64,000 nucleotides of DNA from Ferroplasma sp. (GTDB lineage: Archaea; Thermoplasmatota; Thermoplasmata; Thermoplasmatales; Thermoplasmataceae), in contig NZ_CP133597.1 of NCBI RefSeq assembly GCF_031200575.1, positions 1,550,001 through 1,614,000 of the forward strand, written 5' to 3'. The notes under the pieces were generated by a model. The model was given only the letters and a program-made list of their open reading frames with translations, had not been told where the DNA came from and did no database searches. Of the stretch, positions 5,036 to 7,752 are shown in pieces; the stretch's first letter is position 1; the number at the start of each line of letters is the position of its first letter. A program made the translations under genes and the position numbers.

Positions 5036-5218
5036 TTATTCTGTATTTCTACTTTTATGCAATTTTATTGTGTTATACACTAAACTTATAAGAAGACCGA
5101 TAAAAAGTAACAAAAACAAAATTATACCGAGTTTATAACTTGTATATATTGAAACTATTAACTCGCCCAAACTTAGAATTATTAAATAGATGATAATTAA
5201 AATATTCCTATTAGCCAT
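5036..5218 (-). CDS. Small two-helix membrane protein, immunity candidate (cassette C)
   Basis: A 60-residue protein with two hydrophobic stretches (about residues 5-22 and 30-50) and a charged end, KLHKSRNTE. No family recognised. It starts 11 bases after the stop of the cassette C peptide gene (5230-5535), with AAAGGCGAC upstream of the ATG as a weak ribosome-binding site. Its first half resembles the 72-residue protein at 6357-6575: both begin with a short Asn/Lys-rich head, then Ile/Leu-rich residues ending in LGE. Position and size fit an immunity protein for the adjacent hydrophobic peptide; this is inference from architecture. Confidence 0.55.
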   Translation of the reverse strand: MANRNILIIIYLIILSLGELIVSIYTSYKLGIILFLLLFIGLLISLVYNTIKLHKSRNTE

Positions 5219-5229
5219 TTTTGTCGCCT

Positions 5230-5535
5230 TTAAAGATCAAAGTTGTTAAAACAACTATGCGCTACCGACGCCGTTACACCAATAAGTGCAATACCTGCAA
5301 ATACAATTACACCCCATGTCGCTAAAAGTGCCAAACCGAATCCAATCCATGCTAATGCGTAAAATATTATCTGTACTGCACACCACCAGTTATTGTCTAT
5401 AGCTATCCCTACTGTTTGATTTATCTCCATATTCTTTACATTATTATCTGTAGACTTTAACATATTACTCATTCCTGTTGCTATGTATGAGTATTCTATA
5501 CCGAATTTGTGCATTGTATTATTTGTCGAGAACAT
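5230..5535 (-). CDS. Variable hydrophobic peptide with conserved leader (cassette C)
   Basis: A 101-residue protein starting MFSTNNTMHKFGIEY. Residues 1-47, up to VGIAID, match the same region of the proteins at 5975-6334 and 6585-7460 with one visible change (KNMEIN for KNKEIN). The last 54 residues are unrelated to theirs: a Gly/Ala/Ile/Trp-rich hydrophobic tail with about two membrane-length segments and Cys near both ends (NNWWCAV and AHSCFNNF). It lacks a signal peptide. The homology continues upstream at DNA level to 5577, but a stop in that frame and no earlier ATG leave MFST as the only sensible start. It is likely an orphan toxin-like cassette, silent or dependent on recombination for export (inference). 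Confidence 0.6.
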   Translation of the reverse strand: MFSTNNTMHKFGIEYSYIATGMSNMLKSTDNNVKNMEINQTVGIAIDNNWWCAVQIIFYALAWIGFGLALLATWGVIVFAGIALIGVTASVAHSCFNNFDL

Positions 5536-5577
5536 ATAATTGATTGATATTAATTTTATACTGTTTATTAAGTTTTT
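5395..5577 (-). repeat. Direct repeat, copy C (183 bp, two mismatches)
   Basis: Third copy of the leader-encoding repeat. It matches 6750-6932 over 183 bases with two substitutions by my reading, one silent and one changing Lys to Met. It spans the conserved leader of the cassette C peptide and stops exactly where the variable tail begins on one side and where the upstream immunity gene ends on the other. Confidence 0.85.
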
Positions 5578-5990
5578 GTTGCTTTATTTTTTTGGGTTAT
5601 AGATTTTTTATTGTAGTTATATGATATCAGAGATAGGAATATTACCCCTATAATTATCGATAAAATTCTTATGATTTTCTTATCTGTTATTTCAAATACA
5701 GCAAATAAGGAGAATGTTAATATTATAATGTCTAAGATATACACTATTTTATTATATACAATTTGCCTATTCTCTTTTACAAAATGTATCGTACCTTTTT
5801 TAGCACTATAATATACGAAAATTAACATTAAAAATAATAATGAAAAGGAGACGATAAATAGTATAAAGGAATCCTTCAATGTAAATACATAAAGTAAACT
5901 GAAAATTATAATGAAAGCAACATCGATAATTGAGTATATCTTTAGATATTTGTATTCATCCATTTTAAATCCCTTTAAAAGCAACCCCAT
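5568..5990 (-). CDS. Four-helix membrane protein, immunity candidate (cassette B)
   Basis: A 140-residue membrane protein with four hydrophobic segments (about residues 17-35, 38-58, 81-103 and 107-125) and a basic C-terminus. No family recognised. It directly follows the cassette B peptide: the first ATG (5990) overlaps the end of that gene by 16 bases, while a second in-frame ATG at 5963, preceded by AAAGGGATT, lies just after the peptide stop and may be the true start. Its stop falls inside the start of repeat copy C. Larger than the partner proteins of cassettes A and C and not obviously related to them, as expected if each partner is matched to its own peptide tail. Confidence 0.55.
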   Translation of the reverse strand: MGLLLKGFKMDEYKYLKIYSIIDVAFIIIFSLLYVFTLKDSFILFIVSFSLLFLMLIFVYYSAKKGTIHFVKENRQIVYNKIVYILDIIILTFSLFAVFEITDKKIIRILSIIIGVIFLSLISYNYNKKSITQKNKATKT

Positions 5991-6334
5991 AAAGTCCCAA
6001 TTATGGATGAGCCACTCGCAGCTATAAATAATCCATTATAAATCCAGAATACTAACATAGTGTCGAATACCAGTCCCACGCCAGACAATAATAGCATCAG
6101 CACCCCAGCAACAAGTCCCACTAAAGAAACAGTACACATCCAATTCCAGTCTATAGCTATCCCTACTGTTTGATTTATCTCCTTATTCTTTACATTATTA
6201 TCTGTAGACTTTAACATATTACTCATTCCTGTTGCTATGTATGAGTATTCTATACCGAATTTGTGCATTGTATTATTTGTTGAGAACATATAATTGATTG
6301 ATATTAATTTTATACTGTTTATTAAGTTTTTCAT
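5975..6334 (-). CDS. Variable hydrophobic peptide with conserved leader (cassette B)
   Basis: A 119-residue protein. Residues 1-65 (MKNLINSIKL through IDWNW) are identical to the corresponding part of the precursor at 6585-7460. The last 54 residues are completely different: MCTVSLVGLVAGV onward, two hydrophobic segments rich in Gly, Leu and Val, with Cys near the beginning and in the final GCF. The copy lacks the signal peptide and the first ~170 codons of the precursor. Reading frame and start are supported by exact conservation. The likely role is a membrane-active peptide cassette paired with the membrane protein at 5568-5990; toxicity is inferred, not shown. Confidence 0.62.
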   Translation of the reverse strand: MKNLINSIKLISINYMFSTNNTMHKFGIEYSYIATGMSNMLKSTDNNVKNKEINQTVGIAIDWNWMCTVSLVGLVAGVLMLLLSGVGLVFDTMLVFWIYNGLFIAASGSSIIGTLWGCF

Positions 6335-6347
6335 TTCATTATTATAT
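6144..6347 (-). repeat. Direct repeat, copy B (204 bp)
   Basis: Identical, as far as I can read, to 6745-6948 over 204 bases. It covers the last few codons before MKNLINSIKL, the whole conserved leader and the IDWNW codons, then ends abruptly at the variable tail. Perfect identity next to completely unrelated flanks indicates recent duplication or ongoing recombination between copies. Confidence 0.9.
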
Positions 6348-6356
6348 TGATGATTC

Positions 6357-6575
6357 CTAGTTTAAATACTTTTTAAATATTCCGCGCCTCCAGTATATTA
6401 TAGTAATAACAGGCAATAATATTGCAAATACTAAAAATATTATAGTAAAATATAAAGAAAAAATTTTATGTTGAACATTATATAGCGTTAAAAAATCTAG
6501 AATACCTAATAGAGCCACAAATTCTCCAAGGACAAGTTCAAATATAAATATAAAAATTTTATTTTTATTATTCAT
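6357..6575 (-). CDS. Small two-helix membrane protein, immunity candidate (cassette A)
   Basis: A 72-residue protein with two hydrophobic segments (about residues 6-27 and 38-60) and a basic tail (YWRRGIFKKYLN). The ATG is preceded by a run of six G that overlaps the stop codon of the precursor gene. This gives a Shine-Dalgarno-like site and tight translational coupling to the peptide. The N-terminal half resembles the 60-residue protein at 5036-5218, including an LGE motif. No named family. Best read as the immunity partner of the cassette A peptide, on context alone. Confidence 0.55.
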   Translation of the reverse strand: MNNKNKIFIFIFELVLGEFVALLGILDFLTLYNVQHKIFSLYFTIIFLVFAILLPVITIIYWRRGIFKKYLN

Positions 6576-6584
6576 ATAACCCCC

Positions 6585-7460
6585 CTAACAGTATATACAT
6601 TCTGTTAAGCCCCCAACAACAGCAAATAGAGCTAAGCCAAGTAATACGATGGTAATTGCAACTGGCCCACCTATGATCAAAAACGCAATTAAACCTATTT
6701 CGAAACTAATGCCACCAGCAAATATTAGAGATAATGGAAGCCAGTTCCAGTCTATAGCTATCCCTACTGTTTGATTTATCTCCTTATTCTTTACATTATT
6801 ATCTGTAGACTTTAACATATTACTCATTCCTGTTGCTATGTATGAGTATTCTATACCGAATTTGTGCATTGTATTATTTGTTGAGAACATATAATTGATT
6901 GATATTAATTTTATACTGTTTATTAAGTTTTTCATTTCATTATTATATGTTGATTTATAGTCAAGTGTAAACTCATTGCCGAGGAGTATTTTAGATGAAT
7001 TGATTGGTACTATGTTTGCATATATGTATGAGATGTTTTCTGAATTACTGCTGTATATTATATCGCCTATTTCAACCTTATAATTCTTGAATGTATCTGT
7101 GAATGCTATTGTATACTTTATATCTGAATTGTTATAGCACTGTAGAAGATAATTTGTATTGTTTGTTCCTTTATAGCTGTATCCCGATGCCTTGAGTGTA
7201 TTGTTTTTTATGTCCCTGTTCTCATATGCCCTTACACTGTTTATTTATTTGCTGCTTATTCCTCCATACTGTATATTACCTGACTGTGAGATGTTGAAGT
7301 TGTTCATGTATGTTATATTGCCTATTTTAACATATTTGGTAGTGACAGTATGGTTATTTATAATATCAGAATTATTATGGTCAACATTATCTGAAAATGC
7401 CATCATGACAAACAAAAGCGCTATAATTATGGATAGTCCTATAATATACTTTTGCTTCAT
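6585..7460 (-). pseudogene. Secreted archaeocin-like precursor, interrupted by one in-frame TAA
   Basis: From the ATG at 7458-7460 to the stop at 6585 the frame has 291 sense and internal-stop codons, broken only by TAA at 7245-7247 (codon 72). Both halves are in the same frame and the downstream half continues without interruption. Residues 1-23 form a signal peptide (MKQKYIIGLSIIIALLFVMM). Next comes an Asn- and Ser-rich exported region of about 200 residues, then the repeated leader (MKNLINSIKL through IDWNW), then a 51-residue hydrophobic tail, Gly/Leu/Ile-rich and ending ECIYC. Size and plan (signal, propiece, C-terminal hydrophobic peptide) recall the halocin C8 proprotein and sulfolobicin precursors; I see no sequence match to either. 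The TAA may be a nonsense mutation, strain polymorphism, or readthrough. Confidence 0.6.
6745..6948 (-). repeat. Direct repeat, copy A, inside the full-length precursor
   Basis: The 204-bp repeat unit in its full-length context, within the precursor gene. Copy B at 6144-6347 is identical by reading; copy C at 5395-5577 matches 183 bases with two changes. All three are in the same orientation, spaced about 600-750 bp apart, so recombination would delete or exchange tail plus partner-gene cassettes. Confidence 0.9.
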
Positions 7461-7752
7461 ATAAAATATAACACATAGTTATATATAGAGTTTTGGTACA
7501 AATATCTTTCATAATATTATCCTCAATTACCATACTGTATAGGAAATTCTTATGTACACCCAAACTAATTCCAATTTAATCACATAATGTAATTCCTTGG
7601 GATTCTGAAGAGGGAATTCACGGTGTCCATATAAGAGTTGAGTAGTAAGGCAGAATGTATGTTCTATATATAACAAAAATTGGCCGGAATTATCTGGGAG
7701 ACATTACATATTTTCATATATCGGGAACAGAGATAGCCACTTATGATTTTTA
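7461..7752. other. Intergenic region with the precursor promoter
   Basis: About 290 bases of AT-rich DNA between the precursor and the amidohydrolase. On the minus strand a TATA box (TATATATAA, 7479-7487) lies 23 bases ahead of the precursor ATG, so the precursor mRNA should be leaderless. I see no credible gene or RNA in the remainder. Confidence 0.6.
7479..7487 (-). promoter_or_regulatory. TATA box of the archaeocin-like precursor
   Basis: TATATATAA read on the minus strand, centred about 23 bases upstream of the ATG at 7460. This is the spacing expected of an archaeal TATA box serving a leaderless transcript. Cassettes B and C have no comparable promoter immediately upstream of their leaders, so they depend on read-through from here or are silent. 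Confidence 0.6.

What the first reader, a model, noticed from the sequence alone, without database searches (positions are those of the whole stretch)
7245..7247. Single in-frame TAA splits the secreted precursor
The 71-codon signal-peptide part and the ~219-codon remainder are in the same frame, 312 bases between the TAA and the internal ATG at 6933-6935 being divisible by three. The stretch between is free of other stops and reads as protein. The break lies in AAATAAATAAAC. It could be a recent nonsense mutation inactivating the toxin, a strain-level polymorphism, a sequencing error, or rare readthrough.
Basis: seen in the sequence. Interest (0 to 1): 0.6.

Follow-up and report, generated by a model that had tools for sequence, protein, structure and literature searches.

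The report
Disarmed archaeal toxin with spare cassettes
An acid-loving archaeon carries a secreted toxin-like gene with swappable ends, broken by one recent stop codon while its spare ends and putative protective genes stay intact, and several related species have lost the start of the same gene in other ways.

Summary
The TAA at 7247-7245 (minus strand) is real. It is the only stop in a 291-codon frame where about 22 are expected by chance, and it cuts off the signal peptide. The gene is the sole full-length "head" in this genome of a polymorphic secreted-toxin-like family of Thermoplasmata; genome sizes suggest Ferroplasma. Behind it lie two orphan 3' cassettes. Each tail is hydrophobic, usually bracketed by two cysteines, and followed by a small membrane protein (putative immunity). 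Across genomes, tail similarity and neighbour similarity correlate at r = 0.70, against 0.08 +/- 0.05 shuffled (0 of 2000). A species with the same locus has a sense codon there and a different tail on its head. Over codons 1-174 dN/dS between the two is 0.16 at dS 0.34, so the stop is recent. No start codon follows the stop before the anchor, so the remainder cannot be secreted; readthrough is unlikely. Most likely a recent nonsense mutation giving an immune non-producer. It is not isolated: 10-11 of 18 heads surveyed are damaged, and every single-lesion case lies within the first ~72 codons, while tails and their neighbours mostly stay open. Toxicity and immunity are inferred, not shown.

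The parts
7245..7247 (-). In-frame TAA, codon 72 of the precursor frame
   Evidence: only stop in a homologous N-part
7248..7460 (-). N-piece: signal peptide (hydrophobic stretch, residues 5-23) and first part of the conserved secreted domain (71 codons)
   Evidence: aligned with intact homologues
7480..7487 (-). TATATATA box starting 27 nt before the ATG, as expected for an archaeal promoter with a leaderless transcript (inferred)
6585..7244 (-). Remainder of the precursor after the stop (219 codons): rest of the secreted domain, anchor, toxin tail 1; no ATG/GTG/TTG in frame before the anchor ATG at 6935
6741..6948 (-). Anchor repeat: 208 bp, 100% identical to 6140-6347 and 92% to 5386-5593; the shared segment in which cassettes would recombine
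6585..6749 (-). Tail 1: hydrophobic putative toxin end of the head gene; same family as the last orphan cassette of G008
6357..6575 (-). Putative immunity protein 1 (72 aa, 2 predicted TM)
5975..6334 (-). Orphan cassette 2: anchor plus tail 2, no signal peptide
5568..5963 (-). Putative immunity protein 2 (131 aa, 4 predicted TM); homologues follow the same tail family in G001 and G002
5230..5577 (-). Orphan cassette 3: anchor (without its start codon) plus tail 3
5036..5218 (-). Putative immunity protein 3 (60 aa, 2 predicted TM)

Best explanation
The gene is the expressed head of a polymorphic archaeal bacteriocin-like (archaeocin) locus. A signal peptide and a conserved secreted domain would carry an exchangeable hydrophobic, usually Cys-bracketed helical hairpin out of the cell to act on the membranes of competing archaea. 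A small membrane protein encoded just behind each tail would protect the producer. The two downstream cassettes are silent donors (anchor + tail + immunity) that can replace the head's 3' end by recombination in the anchor. Shown here: the architecture, tail-neighbour pairing, different tails at one locus, the stop, and the selection pattern. Inferred: secretion, toxicity, membrane target, immunity. A recent nonsense mutation at codon 72 cuts the secreted domain behind the signal peptide, so no toxin can be exported. The organism is probably an immune non-producer that keeps its donor cassettes.
For: Only one lesion in the gene, in an otherwise conserved N-part. N-part dN/dS is 0.16 (dS 0.34) against the same-locus homologue of G008, which has a sense codon at the site and no length change. 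It is the only head in the genome; the one other weak hit is a transposase. No start codon lies between the stop and the anchor ATG. 44 of 45 tails across nine genomes are followed by a small downstream ORF, usually a membrane protein, and tail similarity tracks ORF similarity across genomes (r = 0.70; shuffled 0.08, sd 0.05; 0 of 2000). Flanks on both sides match G008 at 82-84% while the head tails differ, and the window's head tail has its best match in G008's last orphan cassette. The anchor is 100% identical over 208 bp with cassette 2, meaning recent recombination. Intact heads exist in G002, G004, G005 and G007. Other 5' lesions occur in other genomes, including a 2.6-kb insertion with two transposase genes in G009.
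Against: No read data and no second strain, so an error or a minority variant cannot be ruled out. No toxin or immunity activity is shown, and no Pfam, NCBIfam or PDB relative supports the function. The structure model has low confidence (pLDDT 42), so the hairpin is a secondary-structure hint only. Tail 1 lacks the first of the two conserved cysteines. The same-locus head in G008 has lost its canonical start codon, so the locus may have been weakening in both lineages.
Confidence: 0.78

Rival explanations
1. Sequencing or assembly error: the gene is intact in the living organism.
For: No reads are available; one base can create the stop; a frame so well conserved is what an intact gene would show.
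Against: The genome is one contig at 99% completeness. Large neighbouring genes are intact full-length frames. The difference is a substitution without length change, not the homopolymer indel typical of long-read errors. Several related heads are damaged too, so a real lesion is not surprising.
Confidence: 0.1
2. Plain decay: the whole locus is a pseudogene family on its way out in this clade.
For: 10-11 of 18 heads are damaged. One head (G078 C34) carries many stops. G003 keeps only a signal fragment. G008 has lost the canonical start.
Against: N-part dN/dS is 0.16. Cassettes and immunity genes in the window are all open, and immunity 2 has dN/dS 0.26-0.30 against G001 and G002. Seven intact heads exist, with new tail combinations and near-identical anchors showing ongoing recombination.
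Confidence: 0.08
3. The split gene still works: readthrough or recoding of TAA, or internal restart making a shorter product.
For: The frame continues cleanly for 219 codons. An ATG sits at the anchor (6935) and also starts orphan cassette 2.
Against: TAA is the ordinary terminator here (27 of 43 long frames). There is no start codon before the anchor. A product from the anchor ATG has no signal peptide. That ATG is not conserved: G005 heads and orphans, and window cassette 3, lack it.
Confidence: 0.04

Closest known systems
Polymorphic toxin systems (Zhang et al. 2012, PMC3482391)
   Same: One full-length protein with an exchangeable C-terminal end; downstream standalone cassettes of homologous ends; each followed by its own immunity gene; recombination brings tail and immunity in together.
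   Different: Tails are short hydrophobic stretches rather than nucleases or deaminases; no known delivery system, repeat stalk or processing domain found; archaeal, where PMC3482391 calls such systems generally rare.
Archaeal antimicrobial peptides and polymorphic toxins surveyed by Makarova et al. 2019 (mBio e00715-19; not held here, known only through citing papers PMC6869823 and PMC8416519)
   Same: Predicted secreted weapons in archaea; 141 archaeal genomes were reported to encode polymorphic toxins (PMC6869823).
   Different: Could not check whether this family is listed; PMC8416519 says DNases and RNases are the commonest archaeal toxin ends, unlike these tails.
Halocins and sulfolobicins (archaeocins)
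   Same: Secreted proteinaceous agents of archaea, reported to act on membranes (PMC6869823).
   Different: No sequence family hit; cassette arrays with exchangeable tails are not a described feature of either, to my knowledge.
CDI / two-partner secretion and MafB systems of Gram-negative bacteria (PMC3848433, PMC4287609; abstracts only read)
   Same: As I know these systems: 3' end exchange from silent downstream cassettes with cognate immunity genes.
   Different: Different secretion route and proteins; no homology detected.

Membership tests
Polymorphic toxin systems | Constant N-terminal region with variable C-terminal end | tested here: met
   Alignment of 12 heads: conserved to the anchor, then divergent tails
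Polymorphic toxin systems | Downstream standalone cassettes homologous to the 3' end | tested here: met
   Two in the window, more in other genomes
Polymorphic toxin systems | Immunity gene right behind each toxin end, specific to it | tested here: inconclusive
   Position and pairing met (44 of 45; r = 0.70, 0 of 2000 shuffles); protection itself not testable here
Polymorphic toxin systems | Exchange of ends by recombination | tested here: met
   Same locus, different head tail in G008; 100% identical 208-bp anchor copies
Polymorphic toxin systems | Recognisable toxin domain and delivery or processing domain | tested here: not met
   No Pfam or NCBIfam hit above cut-off, no PDB relative. So it works like such a system; formal membership is not claimed
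Polymorphic toxin systems | Growth inhibition of related cells | not testable with these tools
   Needs experiment
Archaeocins (halocins, sulfolobicins) | Sequence homology to a characterised archaeocin | tested here: not met
   No archaeocin family hit in Pfam or NCBIfam; sulfolobicin and halocin sequences were not compared directly
Archaeocins (halocins, sulfolobicins) | Secreted and antimicrobial | not testable with these tools
   Signal-like hydrophobic N-terminus seen; activity unknown
Pseudogene by nonsense mutation | Single premature stop in a conserved frame with intact homologues | tested here: met

The most novel reading that the evidence does not exclude
Loss of the secretion end of the head is a repeated, selected or even reversible state: populations switch between armed producers and disarmed but immune carriers by 5' lesions (nonsense, start loss, slippage in short repeats, IS insertion), keeping the tail-immunity library intact and re-arming through recombination with intact heads.
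Probability: 0.2. Interest if true: 0.68.

Novelty: new variant of a known kind. Interest (0 to 1): 0.52.

Why it matters
It places a cassette-swapping secreted-toxin-like family with hydrophobic, mostly Cys-bracketed tails and paired membrane immunity candidates in Thermoplasmata, some of which lack a cell wall (Ferroplasma, PMC12350378). It also gives a natural series of armed and disarmed alleles with immunity kept, making it possible to test in archaea whether weapon producers, immune non-producers and sensitive strains coexist.

Tried and rejected
Own-genome search for a second, intact head: the only other hit (G000:C1:1366326, L050) is an IS3-like transposase. Pfam, NCBIfam, PADLOC and PDB sequence searches found no convincing family (PADLOC LeoBC at 1e-4 in one member was not pursued). 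AlphaFold of an intact natural homologue gave pLDDT 42, too low for fold searches. Viral contigs hold neither the stop-spanning DNA nor a relative of the N-part. Slippage at AAATAAATAAAC as the cause was rejected: no length change against G008. Two separate functional genes was rejected: no start between the stop and the anchor. The sigma-70 promoter scan is uninformative for an archaeon. Makarova et al. 2019 could not be opened.

Full report
OBSERVATION. The minus-strand frame 7460..6585 has one internal stop, TAA at 7247-7245, codon 72. A composition-matched model predicts 22.5 stops in that length and never gave one or fewer in 20,000 trials.

THE GENE. The frame is the N-part, anchor and tail of a secreted precursor. 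Residues 5-23 form a strong hydrophobic stretch, and a TATATATA box starts 27 nt before the ATG, the spacing of a leaderless archaeal transcript (inferred). Close homologues occur in the nine same-genus genomes searched except G006, and in G026 and G078 of a second genus; G001 shows only cassettes and G003 only a signal fragment. Weaker relatives in G021, G098 and G146 extend the family within the class (presumably Thermoplasmata, from the record titles); all three also end in a hydrophobic, cysteine-containing tail.

THE LOCUS. Behind the head lie two orphan cassettes that begin in or near the anchor and have no signal peptide. The three anchors share a 208-bp repeat, 100% identical between head and cassette 2 and 92% in cassette 3. 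Each tail is followed by a small membrane protein with 2 or 4 predicted TM segments. Over all genomes examined, 44 of 45 tails have a small ORF directly downstream, and tails that resemble each other across genomes have ORFs that resemble each other: r = 0.70 against 0.08 +/- 0.05 when ORFs are shuffled within genomes, 0 of 2000 shuffles reaching it. For tail 1 and tail 2 of the window the neighbour pairs as expected; for tail 3 the tail matches the G008 head tail but the neighbour does not, so that pair may have been reshuffled.

CASSETTE EXCHANGE. G008 has the same site: the flanks (electron-transfer genes on one side, an amidohydrolase and carbamoyl-phosphate synthase genes on the other) align at 82-84%. 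Its head carries a different tail, and the window's head tail is most like G008's last orphan cassette. The same locus has therefore carried different ends. Orphans begin at varied points of the anchor, and the anchor ATG is not conserved (G005, window cassette 3), so orphans look like silent donors rather than genes of their own.

THE STOP. Against the G008 head, codons 1-174 give dN 0.055, dS 0.34, dN/dS 0.16; the parts before and after the stop are alike (0.19 and 0.15). Neutral evolution along the whole window branch would have given a much higher dN, so most of the divergence came before inactivation. G008 has a sense codon at the position and the alignment has no length change, so this is a substitution, not slippage. 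No ATG, GTG or TTG follows in frame before the anchor, so reinitiation cannot make a secreted product. TAA ends 27 of 43 long frames in the window, so recoding is unlikely. No other head exists in the genome.

OTHER BROKEN HEADS. Of 18 heads with a readable 5' region, seven are intact (G002, G004, G005 twice, G007 three times). Damaged ones are: G000, nonsense at codon 72; G008, canonical start lost, with an in-frame ATG five codons upstream, so equivocal; G007, one frameshift just after the start and one start loss; G009, a 2.6-kb insertion with two transposase genes between signal and domain; G026 and G078 C55, frameshift in a short A-run after the signal; G078 C40, signal deleted plus that frameshift; G078 C25, signal replaced; G078 C34, many lesions; G003, only a signal fragment left. 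All single lesions lie at or before codon 72 of about 236 codons upstream of the tail. The profile search reads through stops, so later lesions would have been seen. With at least six independent events this is suggestive (about 8e-4 if positions were uniform, my own arithmetic), but the cut-off was chosen after looking and several genomes are MAGs in which an assembly error is possible.

MECHANISM. Best reading: Sec-type export of the precursor, release or display of a membrane-active hydrophobic tail, self-protection by the paired membrane protein, and change of specificity by recombination in the anchor. Only architecture, pairing, different tails at one locus and selection are shown. The stop removes export while leaving immunity and donors, which fits an immune non-producer. 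Whether that is selected, drift or reversible is open.

COMPARISON. The layout is that of polymorphic toxin systems (PMC3482391): constant body, exchangeable 3' end, standalone cassettes, immunity gene next door. It differs in having hydrophobic tails, no known toxin or delivery domain, and an archaeal host, where that paper calls such systems generally absent. The 2019 archaeal survey of such systems could not be opened, so prior description of this family cannot be excluded.

Noticed in passing
L030 about 5247-5306; L037, L041 and L040 just before the head start; L032 about 6305-6337: Short tandem tracts, (TA)n or (ATTAT)n, of different lengths lie between the TATA box and the head start in several genomes; they could vary promoter spacing by slippage.
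   Followed up: partly
L043 (G009:C1:761249-763882): Head gene of G009 (size of F. acidarmanus fer1) is interrupted by a 2.6-kb insertion with two different transposase genes between the signal peptide and the rest.
   Followed up: yes
L047, L082, L083: Heads of a second genus share a frameshift in a short A-run just after the signal peptide in two genomes.
   Followed up: partly
L085 2238-3591, L086 2587-4445, L093 (minus strand): Distant members (315, 470 and 358 aa) in other genera and another family of the class, each ending in a hydrophobic cysteine-bearing tail; L085 and L086 are followed by a ~137-aa membrane protein; the L086 member seems to carry extra Ig/PKD-like repeats (by eye).
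   Followed up: partly
L050 964-1905 (G000:C1 near 1366326): IS3-like transposase with internal stops, a decayed insertion element in the same genome.
   Followed up: no
window 5036-5577: Cassette 3's tail resembles the G008 head tail but its downstream membrane protein does not resemble the G008 partner, a possible mismatch of tail and immunity gene.
   Followed up: no
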